The position numbers were made by a program, and so were the translations under genes. Of a DNA stretch of 64,000 nt, positions 55,327 through 62,875 are shown one piece after another; the first letter of the stretch is position 1; every line of letters begins with the position of its first letter. A model generated the notes under the pieces. It made no database searches and was not told the origin of the DNA. It worked only from the letters and a program-made list of their open reading frames with translations. The stretch is from Nitrosococcus wardiae (GTDB lineage: Bacteria > Pseudomonadota > Gammaproteobacteria > Nitrosococcales > Nitrosococcaceae): positions 3,863,659 to 3,927,658 of the forward strand of contig NZ_CP038033.1 in assembly GCF_004421105.1 (NCBI RefSeq), given 5' to 3'.

Positions 55327-57414
55327 ATGACCCACTCTTCCAAAAAAGATGCCGCGATTGGCCAAGGCGGCGAACTTCATCAACACACCAGCAGTGACAG
55401 TGAAACCTTAACTACCCAACAGGGGCTTCCTGTTGCAGATGACCAAAATTCTTTGCGCGTGGGGACTCGTGGTCCGACTTTACTCGAAGACCATATCATG
55501 CGTGAAAAAATCTTTCATTTTGATCATGAACGTATTCCGGAGCGGGTAGTCCATGCCCGAGGCTATGGCGCCCATGGTTATTTTGAAACTTATGAAAATC
55601 TAAACGATTTAACTCGCGCCGATATTTTCCAAAGAGCAGGAGAAAAAACGCCTGTTTTTGCGCGCTTTTCTACCGTCGCAGGCAACAAAGGTTCGGCAGA
55701 TTTGCCCCGTGATGTACGGGGTTTTGCCGTTAAATTCTACACTAAGGAGGGTAACTGGGATCTTGTAGCCAACAATATTCCAGTCTTTTTCATTCAGGAT
55801 GCCATTAAATTCCCGGACTTAATCCATGCCGCCAAACAAGAGCCTGACCGCGGTTTCCCTCAAGCACAAACCGCCCATGACAACTTTTGGGATTTTGTCT
55901 CACTCACGCCCGAGAGCATGCACATGATTATGTGGATCATGTCCGATCGGGCCATTCCGCGTTCTTTCCGCTTTATGGAGGGCTTTGGCGTTCACACCTT
56001 CCGGCTTATCAATAGCGAGGGCAAATCGACCTTCGTTAAATTTCATTGGAAACCCAAGCAAGGCCTGCAGTCGGTCATGTGGAATGAGGCTTTAAAGATT
56101 AATGGTGCTGATCCAGATTTCCATCGCCGCGACTTATGGGACGCAATTACTATGGGCGACTACCCGGAGTGGGAATTGGGACTGCAAGTTTTTGATGAAG
56201 AATTTGCTGAAAAATTTGATTTTGATGTGCTTGATGCCACCAAAATTATTCCAGAAGAGGAAATTCCGGTAAAGATTGTGGGACGGTTGGTGTTAGACCG
56301 GGTAGTGGATAATTTTTTTGCCGAAACCGAACAGGTTGCGTTTTGCACACAGAATATTGTTCCCGGTATTGATCACTCAGATGATCCGTTACTTCAAGGG
56401 CGCAATTTTTCCTACTTGGACACGCAACTCAAACGCTTAGGCAGTCCCAATTTTACTCACATTCCCATCAACGCCCCCAAATGCCCGATGCATCATTTCC
56501 AACAAGATGGTCACATGGCGATGCACAACCCCAAGGGTAGGGCCAACTACGAACCCAATAGTTGGGGAGAAAAAGGCGGGCCGAGAGAAAACCCAGCTAA
56601 AGGCTTCACCAGCTATGCCGCCCCCCTAAGCGGCCAGAAAGCAAGAATCCGCTCAGAAACTTTTGCCGATCATTACAGCCAAGCGCGGCAGTTTTATATC
56701 AGCCAAACACCCATAGAGCAAAAACACATGAGTAACGCACTCATATTTGAACTCAGCAAGGTGGAGCGAAAAGATATTCGTGAACGCATAGTATCTCACT
56801 TGCTTAATATTGATGATGATTTAGCCAAGGCAGTCGCCCGGGGCCTAGGTCTCGAGGCGCTTCCCCAGCCGGCCCAAGCTGCCAAACCCACCCGCAGGGA
56901 CTTAAAGGCATCGGAGAAGCTTAGTATTCTTAAAAATGGTCCGGACACCTTCAAAGGACGTAAAATCGGCATTCTAATGACGGACGGTGCTGATGCAGAT
57001 ATCTACTCTGCCTTGGAAAATATAGCAAAATCAGAAGGCGCTCTAATTGAAGTTATTGCCCCTCAGGTGGGTGGCGTGACGGACAATCGCAATACCAAAA
57101 TCAGCGCCGCCCAAAAAGTTGATGGCGGTCCCTCTGTACTCTATGATGCGGTGGTTATTTTGACTTCTGAGGAGGGTGCAAAAAACCTCGTTAAATTACC
57201 CCCTGCAAAAGACTTTGTCAATGATGCCTTTGCCCATTGCAAATTTATCGGCTTTGTCAAAGGGGCAGAACCACTTTTAGAAGCTACCGGTGTTGCTCAG
57301 AAACTTGACCCGGGATGTTTGCTGCTTAAAGATGAAGAATCCGTTAGTAGTTTCGTTAAAACATGTAGAAATTTGCGTTTCTGGGAAAGGGAAGAAGGCT
57401 TTGTTGAAAGCTAG
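55327..57414 (+). CDS. katE: Large-subunit catalase HPII (KatE type)
   Basis: 695 residues. Catalytic His in [15 protein letters not shown], haem pocket [36 protein letters not shown], and the proximal haem-ligand Tyr in [10 protein letters not shown]. The C-terminal ~150 residues form the flavodoxin/DJ-1-like domain ([18 protein letters not shown]) that marks clade 2 catalases. Dismutates hydrogen peroxide. Monocistronic. Confidence 0.97.
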
Positions 57415-57485: not shown

Positions 57486-57557
57486 CCCCCTTCCCTCTCC
57501 AACTATTTAACCCGCTGTACTGCCTCGATTTAGGGCAGCGCATAGTTAAACAATACT

Positions 57558-57728
57558 TTAGACAGTTTTAAGCAGTTGTAGCCCCATAGTAAGGTGACTC
57601 GGACGCGCCACTTTGAGCTTGGCTTTGAGCCGGTAACGTACCATTTGATGCACGGTCTTATACTTGAGAAGTAGTGCTTTTAATTTCTCGGCGCTCTCCT
57701 TAATCTCTAGCTCCAGCCATCGGCTCAT
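57558..57728 (-). pseudogene. N-terminal fragment of an IS630-like transposase
   Basis: ATG 57728 to TAA 57558, 56 residues: MSRWLELEIKESAEKLKALLLKYKT. This EIKESAEELK...K-type opening resembles the HTH leader of IS630-related transposases, but the rest of the protein is missing. Mobile-element relic at the edge of the accessory region. Confidence 0.5.
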
Positions 57729-57839
57729 GATCCTCACTCCTCCCGATAAACTCGCTTCTCATAATGCAAAGCACAAGCGACAGCAGGAACAGCTACTATC
57801 AAGTAGAGTCGTAATTGATAGTGGGACACAGAGGCTGCC

Positions 57840-58118
57840 ATGAAACGACAACGCGCCCTTGAATTGCTGGCCCAAAGCAAGCCGGAGCTGCAGGCCCGCT
57901 TTGGCGTCACCCACCTGCCCTTGTTCGGCTCGACGGCGCGGGATACGGCGGAGGCCGACAGCGATGTGGATATTCTGGTCGCCTTCGACGGCCCAGCTAC
58001 CTCAAAGCGCTATTTCGGGGTACAGTTCTATCCGGAAGACCTGCTGGGCTGTCCAGTGGATCTGGTCACTGAAAAGGCCCTGCGCCCCTATATCGAAAAG
58101 GAACGGGTCTATGTCTGA
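57840..58118 (+). CDS. mntA: MntA-like minimal nucleotidyltransferase antitoxin
   Basis: 92 residues: LFGSTARDTAEADSDVDILV is the GS...DxD nucleotidyltransferase motif, followed by PVDLVTEKALRPYIE. MntA AMPylates and inactivates the HEPN toxin HepT encoded next door. Here its partner is truncated after 16 codons, so the antitoxin is orphaned. The frame looks intact. Confidence 0.9.
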   Translation: MKRQRALELLAQSKPELQARFGVTHLPLFGSTARDTAEADSDVDILVAFDGPATSKRYFGVQFYPEDLLGCPVDLVTEKALRPYIEKERVYV

Positions 58119-58158
58119 TGCACCGATGCGGGAATGGCGCTTCTATCTCGATGACATG
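58111..58158 (+). pseudogene. hepT: HepT (DUF86) toxin, N-terminal stub
   Basis: ATG 58111 overlaps the mntA stop in the normal mntA-hepT way. The first 16 residues (MSDAPMREWRFYLDDM) match HepT N-termini, then at 58159 the sequence switches abruptly to a copy of the higB 5' region. The catalytic RX4HXY motif is lost. Confidence 0.75.
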
Positions 58159-58566
58159 TCGGTTGAGTTGCGCCAATTTGCGCCGCGCCGATTGCGGTAT
58201 CTCTGGCGCTAACCGGCGTACTCGCTGGTTAGCGAAGACAACCGCCGTTTCTTTATTGGCGAACGTCCTAATCATCAAGGGTTCGGACAGTTTTTACTCA
58301 GAATGATCAATGAGTTGCCATTCCCAGACGAATAAAATGCAAGTTAGGACTCTCCTTAAGTTACATTTAATTCGGTAAGTCTCTGATTATTGGTAGCAAG
58401 CTCGCCCAAAACTGTCCGAAGTATTGAATCATGGGTAATGAGACTAACGAAGGACGTTAGTATCATCAATGGTTATTAGAACAGGAGACTATCCTGAGTG
58501 TTCCTAATTCTCTGGGCTGATTTTGGAAGCAGCGGGTTTTTCCCCTTCCCTTCCCAACTACCTGAT
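58159..58566. repeat. Duplicated higB 5'-end/operator segment, copy 1
   Basis: Matches 59599-59849 at constant offset 1440 up to 58275, then, after a 157-bp insertion, to 58566. It carries the first ~39 codons of higB in reverse orientation (MIRTFANKETAVVFANQR...), the operator palindrome in a degenerate form and upstream DNA. A few substitutions separate the copies. It truncates hepT. Confidence 0.9.
58276..58426. mobile_element. 151-bp MITE inserted in copy 1
   Basis: Absent from the paralogous segment at 59715. Ends pair as CAA-nnn-TTCGGACAGTTTT in inverted orientation (left near 58276-58295, right near 58407-58426). Flanking 6-bp direct repeat AATCAT at 58270-58275 and 58427-58432. No coding capacity. 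Confidence 0.82.
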
Positions 58567-58633
58567 TCGTTTTCGACGGGGCACGGGCCGAACTCAACGA
58601 GCTTCCGCTGGCGGCGGAGGCGAGGAACAAACG

Positions 58634-58660
58634 AAAAAATCCCGTATTGACACGGGATTA
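58634..58660 (-). terminator. Terminator next to a tmRNA 3'-end remnant
   Basis: On the minus strand AATCCCGT-GTCAAT-ACGGGATT followed by TTTTTT. It lies 33 bp beyond the CCA of the tmRNA-like fragment, where an ssrA terminator would be expected. Confidence 0.7.
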
Positions 58661-58692
58661 TGGACGGTCTTGGATGGTGCTGGATGGTGAAT

Positions 58693-58706
58693 TGGTGGAG
58701 GCGGCG
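58693..58706 (-). other. Putative att site: 14-nt match to the tmRNA (ssrA) 3' end
   Basis: Minus-strand CGCCGCCTCCACCA is the standard tmRNA acceptor end plus CCA. Sequence to the right (58707 on) is unrelated to tmRNA, which is the pattern left when an element integrates into the 3' end of ssrA. Nearby ATACCCCCAAAAATACCCCC (58771-58790) could be arm-type repeats. The intact ssrA would be expected further right, outside the window. Confidence 0.45.
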
Positions 58707-59058: not shown

Positions 59059-59421
59059 CTATGAGAAGGTCTGATGATTTTCTTTCCACGGCTGGATGGC
59101 TACCAACGTGTCCGCGAGCTTGTCACGGGCCATTTCCACATCATAATCGGTTTGAAGTCCTACCCAAAAGCTATCGTTCAGGCCGAAAAACCGGGACAAG
59201 CGCAGCCCCGTGTCTGCAGTGATGGCACGTTTGCCGGCAACGATTTCGCCAATACGGCGCTGCGGTACGCCGATTTCCTTGGCTAATCGATACTGAGTAA
59301 TGCCCATCGGCTTTAAAAACTCTTCCAGAAGGATTTCACCTGGATGGATAGGAGGTAGCTTCTCGCCGGTAGCCACATCAGAGAAATCCATGGTGGCGAG
59401 ATCTTCAGTACGAATGCTCAT
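59059..59421 (-). CDS. higA: HigA-family antitoxin
   Basis: 120 residues: IHPGEILLEEFLKPMGITQYRLAKEIGVPQRRIGEIVAGKRAITADTGLRLSRFFG is the HigA XRE-type helix-turn-helix. It neutralises HigB and represses the operon through the palindrome upstream of higB. Second gene after higB, 12 bp apart. The ~20-residue N-terminal extension (MSIRTEDLATMDFSDVATGE) is longer than usual. Confidence 0.93.
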   Translation of the reverse strand: MSIRTEDLATMDFSDVATGEKLPPIHPGEILLEEFLKPMGITQYRLAKEIGVPQRRIGEIVAGKRAITADTGLRLSRFFGLNDSFWVGLQTDYDVEMARDKLADTLVAIQPWKENHQTFS

Positions 59422-59433
59422 CGCTTCTCTCCA

Positions 59434-59715
59434 TCAATGATAATCCACAATTTCGACCTCATAGGCGTCGCCACTCTCAAACCGAAAACATATCCGCCAT
59501 TGATCGTTAATACGAATACTCCAAGCCCCTGCACGGTCGCCGGAGAGTTTTTCCAGCCGATTGCCGCTTGGAATCCGCAGCTCGCTAACGTCTTTTACTC
59601 GGTTGAGTTGCGCCAATTTGCGCCGCGCCGATTGCAGTATCTCTGGCGGTAACCGGCGTACTCGCTGGTTAGCGAAGACAGCAGCCGTTTCTTTATTGGC
59701 GAACGTCCTAATCAT
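59434..59715 (-). CDS. higB: HigB-family toxin (RelE-like RNase)
   Basis: 93 residues: MIRTFANKETAAVFANQRVRRLPPE, LNRVKDVSELRIPSGNRLEKLSGDRAGAWSIRINDQWRICFRF. The typical HigB/RelE fold; cleaves mRNA on translating ribosomes. Toxin-first order as in other higBA loci. Its 5' part is duplicated at 58159-58275. Confidence 0.93.
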   Translation of the reverse strand: MIRTFANKETAAVFANQRVRRLPPEILQSARRKLAQLNRVKDVSELRIPSGNRLEKLSGDRAGAWSIRINDQWRICFRFESGDAYEVEIVDYH

Positions 59716-59849
59716 GGGTAATGATACTAACGAAGTACGTTAGTATCATCAATGGTTATTAGAACAGGAGACTATCCTGAGTGTTCCTAATTCTCTGGGC
59801 TGATTTTGGAAGCAGCGGGTTTTTCCCCTTCCCTTCCCAACTACCTGAT
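59599..59849. repeat. Duplicated higB 5'-end/operator segment, copy 2 (native context)
   Basis: Source-like copy because it is continuous with complete higB. Shares 251 bp with copy 1, minus the MITE. Confidence 0.88.
59721..59749. promoter_or_regulatory. Palindromic operator upstream of higBA
   Basis: ATGATACTAACG-AAGTA-CGTTAGTATCAT, 12-bp perfect arms, starting 6 bp upstream of the higB ATG on the template. Position and symmetry fit a HigA-binding operator. Copy 1 carries two changes in this palindrome. Confidence 0.75.
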
Positions 59850-59980
59850 GAATTTTCTTAAGGAAGGTGGGGATTACCAATTTTTTTGATAATTCAAAAG
59901 CTGACTCTTTATCCTTATGCCAAACTAGACAATCTGCTGTGCTTACTGAGGTGTCCTGGCAATAGTGGACACTCTTTTTT

Positions 59981-60841
59981 TCAAACAACCCCCTGTAGTT
60001 TGCGGAAGTTTTGAGCAAACACCGCTGGGGCCAGGTAGCCAAGGCGCGAGTGGCGCCGTTGGCGATTATAAAAGATTTCAATGGTCTCCCGAATGGAGGC
60101 CTGCGCCTCAGCCCGGGTGTCATAACGGTGGTGATAGACCCACTCATTTTTTAAACTGCCCCAGAAGCTTTCTACTGGTGCGTTGTCGTCACAGTTTCCT
60201 CTCCGGGACATAGAAGCGATGAGGCCGTGTTGTTCCAATAGGCGCTGGTAGTCCTGAGCACAGTATTGGCTGCCGCGATCGGAGTGGTGAATCAGACCGG
60301 GTTTGGGGCGCTGGTAGCCGATCGCCTGCCATAGGGCTTGTCCCACAAGCGCTTGGGGCATGCGTTCTCCCAAGGCATAACCGACGATCTCGCAGGTGAA
60401 TTGATCCTTGACCCCCGCTAAATAGAGCCCACCTTCTCCGGTGGGAATATAAGTGATGTCGGCATGCCAGACTTCATTGGGCGCCTGGGCCTCGAACGGT
60501 TGATCCAACCGATTTTCCGCCACCGGCAAGTCGTGATTCGACGGCGTGGTTGCCTTGAATTTGCGCTTTTGTTTGCAGACCCTCCCCATCGCTCGACGCA
60601 GCCGAGCAATCCGGTCACGACCGACCTCGAACCCTTCGGCCTTGAGCTCCCGTTGTCAGCGCTTCGCCCCATAGGTCCCTCGGGTTTTGCAATCGCCCGC
60701 GCGCAGAGCGACCTTCAGTCGCTCGTCCTCACAGGCTCGCTTAGCGGGCGGGCGGCTCAGCCATGCATAAAATCCACTGCAGGAAACCTCCAGAACCCGC
60801 GCCATGACTTGCACTGGATACTCGAGCCGCCACCGCTTCAT
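59981..60841 (-). pseudogene. IS3-family transposase OrfB with in-frame TGA
   Basis: ATG 60841 overlaps the orfA stop (ATGA). Motifs: CSGFYAWLSRPPAKR, then TGA at 60656-60658, then in the same frame QRELKAEGFEVGRDRIARLRRAMG and the rve integrase core with VWHADITYIP (Asp), GLIHHSDRGSQYC (Asp) and DDNAPVESFWGSLKNEW (Glu). The stop separates the HTH_21 part from the intact catalytic core. Confidence 0.9.
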
Positions 60842-61146
60842 GAACGCGTACCTTGCAGCGACTCCTTGGCAAAGTACGCCGCCGCTTTTTTTACTCTCTC
60901 CCGCTCCCGCTGAGTCTCCGCCAATTCCTGACGCAGTCGCCGGATTTCCGCCTCTAACTCCGCCACACTCCGAACTCCTGGCCCCCTCGGCACCTTTCCT
61001 CCTTTGGCTTTGTTGACCCAGGTGGCCAACGTCCCCTTGGGAATCGCTCACCGATGGGCCGCTTCTGTCAAGGATAACTCCTGCTCCAAAATTAACTTCA
61101 CTGCCTCAGCCCGAAACTCGGGGGTATAGCTCTGTTTAGGTTCCAT
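60838..61146 (-). pseudogene. IS3-family OrfA with in-frame TGA
   Basis: ATG 61146 (MEPKQSYTPEFRAEAVKLIL), an HTH of the transposase_8 type, broken by TGA 61048-61050 right after LTEAAHR, then in frame AIPKGTLATWVNKAKGG and a leucine-zipper coiled coil ELEAEIRRLRQELAE. Ends at 60838. Confidence 0.88.
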
Positions 61147-61208
61147 TTCCTTCCTCCTCAATCAGCTCAGTTTAACCGATCAGGAGTGTCCATTTTTCTC
61201 AGGATACC

Positions 61209-61583
61209 TCAGCAATTCTGTCGCCCCGCAAGGGTTGGCAGAACCTTGCCACGCATGTACCGACCGAAATTCCCCTTGTAACGCCATCTATTGGCGGATT
61301 GTAAAAGTTCGTCAAATTCCCTAGTGATCTTTCCAGCTTCAATTTCTGTCAATCCGCCGCTAGTTCTGTAGCGCGGAATGAATGACGTAATAACCCATAG
61401 CAGGAACAAGGACGTAAGAATTGCCGCAGCGATTGCTCGAACGTAACTAAGAGCCGCGTCAAGGAGCGATAAACTACTAAGCTTCCAATCTAGAACCAGA
61501 GCAAGCAGAAATAATACGATCAACAGAACGACAAAAGTTCGTCTATGTTCCTTAGGCAGGGTCAGAATTGATTTTGGGTCCAT
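61209..61583 (-). pseudogene. Two-helix membrane protein truncated by IS3
   Basis: ATG 61583 (MDPKSILTLPKEHRR); two transmembrane helices (TFVVLLIVLFLLALVLD and AIAAAILTSLFLLWVI), then a cytosolic start GLTEIEAGKITREFDELLQSANRWRYKGNFGRYMRGKVLP that runs into the IS3 terminus, whose first bases supply the stop. The missing C-terminal domain would be the functional part. Family unrecognised. It follows an attC-like site and so may be a captured cassette gene. Confidence 0.65.
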
Positions 61584-61719: not shown

Positions 61720-62238
61720 TTATTCTTTAATTCCTGTTTCTAACTCGAGGTCTCTCGGGATATCTGAGGGACGTTTCATTAAGATTCTATTGCCTTTTTT
61801 GCCTTCAGAAATGTTTTCGTATGACCGAACTAGAGTTTCAGGAAGATGTTGCCAAATTTTGTCAGCTAACTCATAAATTTGCTCAATATCTTCGCTACCA
61901 ATTTCAATTGGATAGTTTTTGCTGGGATACCTTAGCTCAACGAAATTAGATAAATACTCCAGAGTTTGCTGTTCTCTCTCGCTTAATGAGAAGTCAGTGT
62001 CGGTTTTTTGAATTTCTTTAATTAAACTAGGTAACGAATGGATGGCTACAAATTGAGAGTTCTCGTGAAGTAACCATGATTTCAATACAAGCTCTAACGC
62101 CATATGTGCTAAATAGCCGGCAGAATCAAAAAGAAATGGGTGGGAGCTAAATAGTAGTGAAGCAGACCACAAATGATGATGACCAGATTGCAACAGGTCT
62201 TCTGGGTTGTAATTGCTTAAATTATATTTCTTTGCCAT
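61720..62238 (-). CDS. HEPN-like helical protein
   Basis: Start at ATG 62238 (MAKKYNLSNYN), overlapping the end of the HNH gene by 17 bp. 172 residues, all helical. LLQSGHHHLWSASLLF, AGYLAHMALELVLKSWLL and FVELRYPSKNYP are the pattern of HEPN-type proteins (membership judged by eye; a strict RX4-6H motif is not seen). HEPN proteins are often RNases or toxin partners. Coupled to the upstream HNH gene. Confidence 0.7.
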   Translation of the reverse strand: MAKKYNLSNYNPEDLLQSGHHHLWSASLLFSSHPFLFDSAGYLAHMALELVLKSWLLHENSQFVAIHSLPSLIKEIQKTDTDFSLSEREQQTLEYLSNFVELRYPSKNYPIEIGSEDIEQIYELADKIWQHLPETLVRSYENISEGKKGNRILMKRPSDIPRDLELETGIKE

Positions 62239-62875
62239 GACATTTGCCTTTGGCAATATGACCTCTGAGCTCAGCCGAGAACGTCGGCTGGATCGACGTA
62301 TTAGAGCGCCTGTAATGGGCCTTTGCGACAGTACGGTTGATTTTCTGAGCCAGAACTTGTGCTTCCTTCATAAGCTCTATGATCGCTTGCCAGTTTTTCC
62401 AATGTTCAGCCCAAACATCCGACCCAACGATTTGCACGAAGTCCAATTGGGTTGGTGAGCCCCAGAGTTCATAGGCCCGCAACTTCTCGATCCTTTCCTC
62501 AAGATCGGCAACCCCACGCGTTTTCGGCGAAAGCCTAGCTGAGCTTCGCATCCAAGATTCCCATTCTTTATTCCCCTTGGATTGGTTGCATTTGCCGCAG
62601 GCGGGCACCAAATTGTGGATTTCTGAAATGTAACCAGTGGGCTTTTTGCCTTTAACAAGTGGGCGTAAGTGATCCCATTCCGTTGCTGTGTCTCCGCAGA
62701 ACGCACATCCATAGGTGTCGTGTGCCATTCCAAGGACATCAAGGGCTTCCTTCACTTCCGCGGCTGTAGGCTGGACAACCGGGATAATGGCATTAACGAA
62801 TGAATTGGTAATGCTTGATGACCGACCGGTGATTTTCATCGGCGTCGGCATTCTAAATAGTGTCAGATAGTCCAT
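62222..62875 (-). CDS. HNH endonuclease
   Basis: 217 residues. CAFCGDTATEWDHLRPLV and EIHNLVPACGKCNQSKGNKEW give the zinc-bound HNH core: CxxC, D-H, H-N, CxxC and N-x-x-K-G. The C-terminal ~90 residues are helical and unassigned. It opens right after a GTTAGAG-type attC half site and overlaps the HEPN gene by 17 bp; together they look like a two-gene cassette. Confidence 0.88.
   Translation of the reverse strand: MDYLTLFRMPTPMKITGRSSSITNSFVNAIIPVVQPTAAEVKEALDVLGMAHDTYGCAFCGDTATEWDHLRPLVKGKKPTGYISEIHNLVPACGKCNQSKGNKEWESWMRSSARLSPKTRGVADLEERIEKLRAYELWGSPTQLDFVQIVGSDVWAEHWKNWQAIIELMKEAQVLAQKINRTVAKAHYRRSNTSIQPTFSAELRGHIAKGKCHGKEI

What the first reader, a model, noticed from the sequence alone, without database searches (positions are those of the whole stretch)
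58111..58566. hepT destroyed by a transplanted higB promoter segment
The mntA-hepT junction is normal, then at 58159 hepT becomes a reversed copy of the higB 5' end and operator found intact at 59599-59849. One toxin gene was replaced by a piece of another locus, leaving an orphan MntA antitoxin and an extra HigA operator that could titrate HigA.
Basis: seen in the sequence. Interest (0 to 1): 0.55.

Follow-up and report, generated by a model that had tools for sequence, protein, structure and literature searches.

The report
Toxin-gene scar beside old genomic island
A bacterial toxin gene was cut off after 16 codons and fused to the leftover start and control region of a second toxin gene, most likely when an old genomic island beside it collapsed; a small mobile element landed in the remains later, and the result looks like ordinary genome wear, not a new device.

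Summary
hepT (ATG 58111) matches an intact sister-species copy up to 58158, then becomes an antisense copy of higB codons 1-39 plus the higBA operator (58159-58566 = 59599-59849; 6 substitutions in 251 nt).

The transplant story is less likely than a relic. Next to the copy (58629-58706) lie 14 nt of the tmRNA 3' end plus the 64-nt integrase-side arm of a tmRNA-targeting island family, without an integrase. The intact higBA sits in a sibling island (26.4 kb, integrase present). Both higB copies point the same way relative to tmRNA; arm and higB copies diverge alike (2.6% and 2.4%). So the junction is most likely a deletion scar between mntA-hepT and an older island that carried its own higBA.

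The orphan MntA keeps its catalytic motif but has a 4-residue deletion seen in 0 of 105 relatives. The spare operator has two changes. hepT loss beside mntA is common: 25 of 76 scorable loci. A new example of known processes; interest is low.

The parts
57840..58118 (+). mntA, 92 aa, type VII antitoxin family (adenylyltransferase); toxin partner lost
   Evidence: PF01909 1.6e-14; NF047752 MntA_antitoxin 40.4 bits, below its cut-off of 60; GSx10DxD kept; 12-nt deletion against 105 relatives
58111..58158 (+). remaining 5' end of hepT, 16 codons
   Evidence: matches G001 up to 58158; intact 118-aa hepT in G001
58111..58212 (+). chimeric frame of 33 residues: hepT start read into antisense higB'
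   Evidence: tail of the ORF 57859-58212
58159..58275 (-). higB' relic, codons 1-39, 4 substitutions
58270..58275 (.). target-site duplication AATCAT (first copy), covers the higB' start codon
58276..58426 (.). MITE, 151 nt, terminal inverted repeats, six copies in the genome, ends shared with an IS701/IS4-like IS
   Evidence: DNA fold z -5.56
58427..58432 (.). target-site duplication AATCAT (second copy)
58438..58466 (.). relic HigA-operator-like palindrome, 11 of 12 arm matches
   Evidence: intact counterpart
58467..58566 (.). rest of the duplicated upstream region, identical to 59750-59849
   Evidence: no differing position listed here
58567..58628 (.). 62 nt of unknown origin between the higB relic and the attachment arm
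   Evidence: only a 24-nt match elsewhere, judged chance
58629..58692 (-). integrase-side arm with terminator, 64 nt, of an earlier tmRNA-targeting island; no integrase beside it
   Evidence: with 58693-58706, 97% to C1:3948643-3948720; arm between tmRNA and integrase in other genera; terminator-like site
58693..58706 (-). displaced fragment of the tmRNA 3' end, 14 nt: far end of the resident island
59059..59421 (-). higA, intact, 120 aa, in the resident island
   Evidence: TIGR02607 105.2 bits
59434..59715 (-). higB, intact, 93 aa
   Evidence: PF05015 1.1e-17; solved HigB relatives
59721..59749 (.). intact higBA operator-like palindrome, 12 of 12 arm matches

Best explanation
This is a deletion scar in a worn tandem-island site at the tmRNA gene, not a working device. 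Inferred order: (1) mntA-hepT lay beside tmRNA, as in the sister genome G001 (shown for G001). (2) An island with a tyrosine integrase and its own higBA entered at the tmRNA 3' end (inferred from its leftover integrase-side arm at 58629-58692). (3) Deletions removed its integrase and interior, and another ran from hepT codon 17 through the island's far end and higA into higB codon 40, joining 16 hepT codons to the antisense 5' end of higB (the junction is shown, the deletion inferred). (4) A sibling island with an intact higBA, type I restriction genes and an integrase entered at the same site (attachment repeats and integrase shown). (5) A MITE jumped onto the start codon of the relic higB (insertion shown; its place in the order after 2 is shown by the empty site at the intact higB, its order relative to 3 and 4 is not known). 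HepT is no longer made; the relic higB cannot make a whole toxin; the orphan MntA is probably decaying too.
For: The match to the intact locus ends exactly at 58158. 58629-58706 is a 97% copy of C1:3948643-3948720, that is 14 nt of tmRNA 3' end plus 64 nt, with the tmRNA at C1:3948707-3949067 and the integrase at C1:3947333-3948544. In other genomes the arm lies between tmRNA and an integrase relative, 58-85% identical over the part aligned: L249 (first 105 residues only), L250, L251, L253; also L138 (G002; integrase 65%, arm 75%). After integration the far fragment should be followed by the old chromosomal flank; here that flank is itself an integrase-side arm, so an earlier relative sat there. 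higB, promoter and upstream region point the same way relative to tmRNA in both copies, and the copies diverge alike (2 of 78; 6 of 251). The MITE (99% to two siblings) is absent from the intact higB, so it came after the two higB copies parted.
Against: No genome with the earlier island and its higBA intact was found: apart from the own genome, the higB upstream region had no close match in the genus (4 genomes) or in a class sample (369 genomes, two candidates scored in each). The 62 nt between the relic and the arm match nothing informative, so that the higB piece belonged to the earlier island rests on position, orientation and similar divergence only. Both divergence figures rest on few differences. 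Of 14 loci with an arm match in other genomes, 7 gave no integrase match (stretches of about 3 kb or less).
Confidence: 0.62

Rival explanations
1. Local transplant: repair of a break in hepT copied 251 nt from the neighbouring higBA (template switching), and the rest of hepT was lost; the MITE came later. The relic island arm would then be an independent leftover.
For: The only two copies found in the genome lie about 1.4 kb apart; the left junction shows no shared base, as non-homologous joining can leave; the source locus is intact.
Against: It makes the position and orientation of the piece beside the integrase-less arm a coincidence, and 2.4% divergence would need a long time since copying.
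Confidence: 0.27
2. A selected regulatory arrangement: the spare operator sequesters HigA, or orphan MntA has a role of its own.
For: The palindrome keeps TAACG-N5-CGTTA; MntA keeps GSx10DxD.
Against: Changes in the operator arm and core, loss of the higB-direction promoter-like match, MITE between operator and higB', a 4-aa deletion in MntA and two proline changes at well-conserved sites. One extra site against an autoregulated repressor would probably change little (inference).
Confidence: 0.05
3. Assembly artefact or collapsed repeat.
For: A direct repeat pair 1.4 kb apart can mislead short-read assembly; no reads were available.
Against: Single-contig genome; the copies differ at 6 places and one carries a MITE with its target duplication.
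Confidence: 0.03

Closest known systems
HepT-MntA (HEPN/MNT) type VII toxin-antitoxin, as in Shewanella oneidensis (PMC7641770, passages read)
   Same: MntA-family gene with GSX10DXD followed by an overlapping hepT start; the sister copy's HepT shows RX4HXY (RNRLIHGY in the translation, read by eye)
   Different: here HepT ends after 16 codons, before that motif, and MntA has a 4-aa deletion
HigBA type II toxin-antitoxin and the GraTA/HigA operators (PMC6393540 and PMC6987408, passages read)
   Same: toxin-first order, palindrome just upstream of higB; TAACGAAGTACGTTA here against TAACGAATAACGTTA in graTA (13 of 15 by eye)
   Different: the site here lacks the exact central TAACGTTA that GraA reads; the copy beside hepT has no higA, only 39 higB codons, and a changed palindrome
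tmRNA-targeting tyrosine-integrase genomic islands and tandem arrays (Islander, PMC4383910, passages read)
   Same: tmRNA gene, displaced 3' fragment, integrase in between; tandem islands are known there
   Different: the outer island is reduced to an arm and, by inference, a higB relic, without an integrase
MITEs derived from DDE insertion sequences (concept recalled, no paper read)
   Same: 151 nt, inverted ends, 6-bp target duplication, several copies, ends shared with a full IS
   Different: nothing notable; landed on a relic start codon
Orphan antitoxins (Klebsiella survey PMC7192599, passages read)
   Same: antitoxin gene kept while the toxin is gone
   Different: that survey treats type II and IV systems; the cause of toxin loss is visible here

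Membership tests
HepT-MntA type VII TA | MntA with GSX10DXD | tested here: met
   GSTARDTAEADSDVD in the translation; motif in 105 of 105 relatives; NCBIfam model matched below its cut-off (40.4 of 60 bits)
HepT-MntA type VII TA | adjacent HepT with RX4HXY | tested here: not met
   hepT ends after codon 16; motif present in the G001 copy
HepT-MntA type VII TA | MntA adenylylates and neutralises HepT | not testable with these tools
   needs an assay
HigBA type II TA (59059-59715) | HigB RelE-like toxin gene followed by HigA | tested here: met
   PF05015 1.1e-17, TIGR02607 105.2 bits against a cut-off of 47.7
HigBA type II TA (59059-59715) | operator palindrome upstream of higB | tested here: met
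   12 of 12 arms; palindromes with TAACG/CGTTA-type half-sites before several, not all, homologous higB genes; binding not tested
HigBA type II TA (relic 58159-58566) | complete toxin and antitoxin genes | tested here: not met
   39 higB codons, no higA
tmRNA-targeting genomic island (resident, C1:3922287-3948720) | tmRNA, displaced 3' fragment in the same orientation, integrase in between | tested here: met
tmRNA-targeting genomic island (earlier, relic) | own integrase and own far-end fragment | tested here: not met
   only the arm is left; no match to the resident integrase anywhere in the window
MITE | short, inverted ends, target duplication, several copies, too short for a transposase | tested here: met
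   151 nt; six copies; 6-bp duplication clear at 3 of 6 copies (L001, L002, L006)

The most novel reading that the evidence does not exclude
In this MntA subfamily the antitoxin outlives its toxin so often (25 of 76 scorable loci; 9 of 25 in the class sample) because MntA has a use without HepT, for example as an anti-addiction shield or on another target; the window would be one of many natural toxin-loss events, caught with its cause visible.
Probability: 0.13. Interest if true: 0.45.

Novelty: new member of a known kind. Interest (0 to 1): 0.2.

Why it matters
It shows in one place how toxin-antitoxin genes in stacked islands can decay: the toxin goes first, the antitoxin lingers and then probably wears too. 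The survey around it fits that rule (intact HepT of the close subfamily without MntA: 0 of 18; MntA without intact HepT: 9 of 25) and lists natural orphan MntA genes that could be tested.

Tried and rejected
Chance similarity and a simple inverted repeat: rejected. The MITE as carrier of the higB piece: rejected, because the target duplication lies inside the higB sequence and the intact copy is the empty site. Origin of 58567-58628: no informative match; the one hit, L257, looked like chance. Polarising the copy by outside relatives of the higB upstream region: failed, no close relative. Deciding from the three amino-acid changes in HigB' whether the copy decayed: uninformative, the sites vary in 32 relatives. 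Comparing decay of orphan (34) and other (67) MntA at 39 conserved columns: no clear difference (means 0.65 and 0.46, one-sided p 0.07); by that measure the window's own MntA deviates at one column only, so its decay rests on the deletion and the two prolines.

Counts and rows dropped. One search kept the best 80 of 108 MntA relatives; 4 of the 80 end too soon and were dropped before the 25 of 76. Some of the 25 are near-duplicates (L057/L059, L100/L101). Broken or missing means no HSP of 95 residues or more to the G001 HepT, so a very divergent hepT would count as missing. In the class sample 25 of the 42 matches outside the own genome (L179-L203, MntA at 55% or more) were scored, and 20 of the 88 HepT matches (L208-L227); of these 20, L224 (frameshift) and L226 (partial) were dropped before the 0 of 18. 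Beyond them, L230 and L231 (HepT at 40-46%) show no MntA match; their partners may be too far from the query. L201/L223 was counted as having an intact HepT although one search reports one in-frame TGA; counting it as broken gives 10 of 25 and 0 of 17. L180 (HepT aligned to residue 104) was counted as intact; in L227 the MntA match starts at the contig edge. The p of 0.006 treats partly shared loci as independent and is only a guide. The promoter-like matches (5 found, 2.1 expected by shuffling) are consensus matches only. In one search the printed chimeric hepT frame was read one base off; the frame given here is that.

Full report
Observation. The window lies at C1:3863659-3927658 of a single-contig genome of 4,022,640 bp. 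Two repeat families join 58159-58275 to 59599-59715 and 58427-58574 to 59710-59857, 97% each. Base by base there are four substitutions in higB' and two in the operator; three mismatches at 58567-58569 mark the end, which I place at 58566/59849. What was missed is the 151 nt between the two halves.

The insert. 58276-58426 begins CAAGGGTTCGGACAGTTTT and ends AAAACTGTCCGAAGTATTG, and lies between two copies of AATCAT. The own genome holds six copies, two of the others at 99%; G001 holds relatives, G002 and G003 none. A 6-bp duplication is clear at three of the six copies (L001, L002, L006) and at two of five full-length insertion sequences with the same ends (L013, L021). The transposase of one of these (L013, 394 aa) matches DDE_Tnp_1 at 5.1e-13 and IS701-type models below the cut-off (best 115.6 against 170 bits). 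The strand folds with z -5.56. The intact higB locus is the empty site, so the MITE came after the two higB copies parted. The duplicated hexamer holds the higB start codon.

What was lost. The sister genome G001 has mntA and a 118-aa HepT beside tmRNA; it matches the window at 92.5% from 57811 to 58158, and the hepT match stops there. Sixteen hepT codons remain and run on into antisense higB, 33 residues in all. G001 HepT shows the RX4HXY signature described for HepT in PMC7641770 (passages read); the window has lost that part.

The neighbourhood. 58629-58706 is a 97% copy of C1:3948643-3948720: 14 nt of the tmRNA 3' end (tmRNA at C1:3948707-3949067) plus 64 nt. Between the two copies lie 26.4 kb with a tyrosine integrase at the tmRNA end, type I restriction genes, transposase genes and a second, divergent mntA-hepT pair. 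This is an island in the sense of Islander (PMC4383910, passages read). The intact higBA lies in it.

Why a relic. The 64 nt beyond the tmRNA end belong to a mobile family. In a class sample 16 of 369 genomes, the own included, match some part of 58560-58706 (two candidates scored per genome). Of the 14 loci fetched besides the own, 8 were given to the tRNA finder and 7 hold a tmRNA. An integrase like the resident one lies beside the arm in L249, L250, L251 and L253; integrase matches were also seen in L255, L262 and weakly in L259; none was found in L252, L254, L256, L257, L258, L260 and L261. L138 (G002) shows arm and integrase, L139 (G003) an arm with integrase pieces. The arm carries a terminator-like hairpin whose sequence changes between relatives, and repeated CATCCA words. 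At the far end of the resident island the flank should be what stood there before; it is an integrase-side arm without its integrase. So an earlier relative was there. The higB relic lies 62 nt from that arm, in the orientation that the resident island's higB has relative to tmRNA, and both pieces differ from their siblings by about 2.5%. That is the case for a deletion scar; its weak points are the unexplained 62 nt and the lack of a genome with the earlier island whole.

Operator. The intact site ATGATACTAACGAAGTACGTTAGTATCAT has 12 of 12 arm matches, the relic 11. Palindromes with TAACG/CGTTA-type half-sites lie before several homologous higB genes, for example L147, L159 and L164, though by no means all of those examined. 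The graTA operator in PMC6393540 (passages read) has the same TAACG-N5-CGTTA layout, but its specific core TAACGTTA is not exact here; the PaHigA site of PMC6987408 (passages read) is TTAAC GTTAA. One relic change (58453) falls between the arms, one (58442) in an arm, and the latter removes the higB-direction promoter-like match found at the intact site. Titration is possible but has no support.

The orphan MntA. Against G001 there are 13 substitutions, 3 of them changing a residue, and a 12-nt deletion. The deletion is in 0 of 105 relatives (80, 25); A27P and L65P occur in 0 of 105; D at position 40 is the commonest residue there. GSx10DxD is kept. Probably decaying; not shown.

How common is it? 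Of 80 MntA loci in named genomes, 51 have a full hepT, 25 a broken or missing one, 4 end too soon. In the class sample, 9 of 25 MntA loci lack an intact HepT, while 0 of 18 intact HepT genes of the close subfamily lack MntA (rows left out are listed under Tried and rejected). The first set was found by MntA, so intact MntA is expected in it; the reverse search is the fair control and shows the asymmetry. Orphan antitoxins are reported as abundant in Klebsiella (PMC7192599, passages read). Whether this asymmetry is in print for HepT-MntA I searched only (six papers listed, one read in passages), so I make no claim.

Verdict. Real, well located, and most likely a scar of island decay with a later MITE. 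Nothing in it calls for a new mechanism.

Noticed in passing
57551-57757: Just upstream of mntA, a right-end fragment of the same IS701/IS4-like element (57551-57590) abuts a shortened copy of another insertion sequence (57591-57757) whose two halves lie apart in copies in G001 and elsewhere in the own genome.
   Followed up: partly
C1:3922287-3948720 (window 58629 to beyond 64000): A 26.4-kb tmRNA island with integrase, type I restriction genes, a divergent mntA-hepT pair (C1:3945187 and 3945432), a HEPN protein (61720-62256) and an HNH protein (62222-62875).
   Followed up: partly
L136:863-1277: G001 keeps next to its tmRNA a piece 90% identical to C1:3945109-3945523 of the resident island, so that site was probably visited by a related island as well.
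   Followed up: no
L057, L059, L056, L042, L054, L061 and others: In many genera hepT is cut soon after its start or later while mntA stays whole; in two Ectothiorhodospira it ends after 18 codons, close to the break in the window.
   Followed up: partly
55327-57414: A large catalase gene; relatives at 77-78% lie at another place in G002 and G003, and G001 gave no match to it.
   Followed up: no
59943-61215: An insertion sequence with inverted ends and an rve-type transposase frame, about 100 nt from the end of the duplicated higB upstream region.
   Followed up: no
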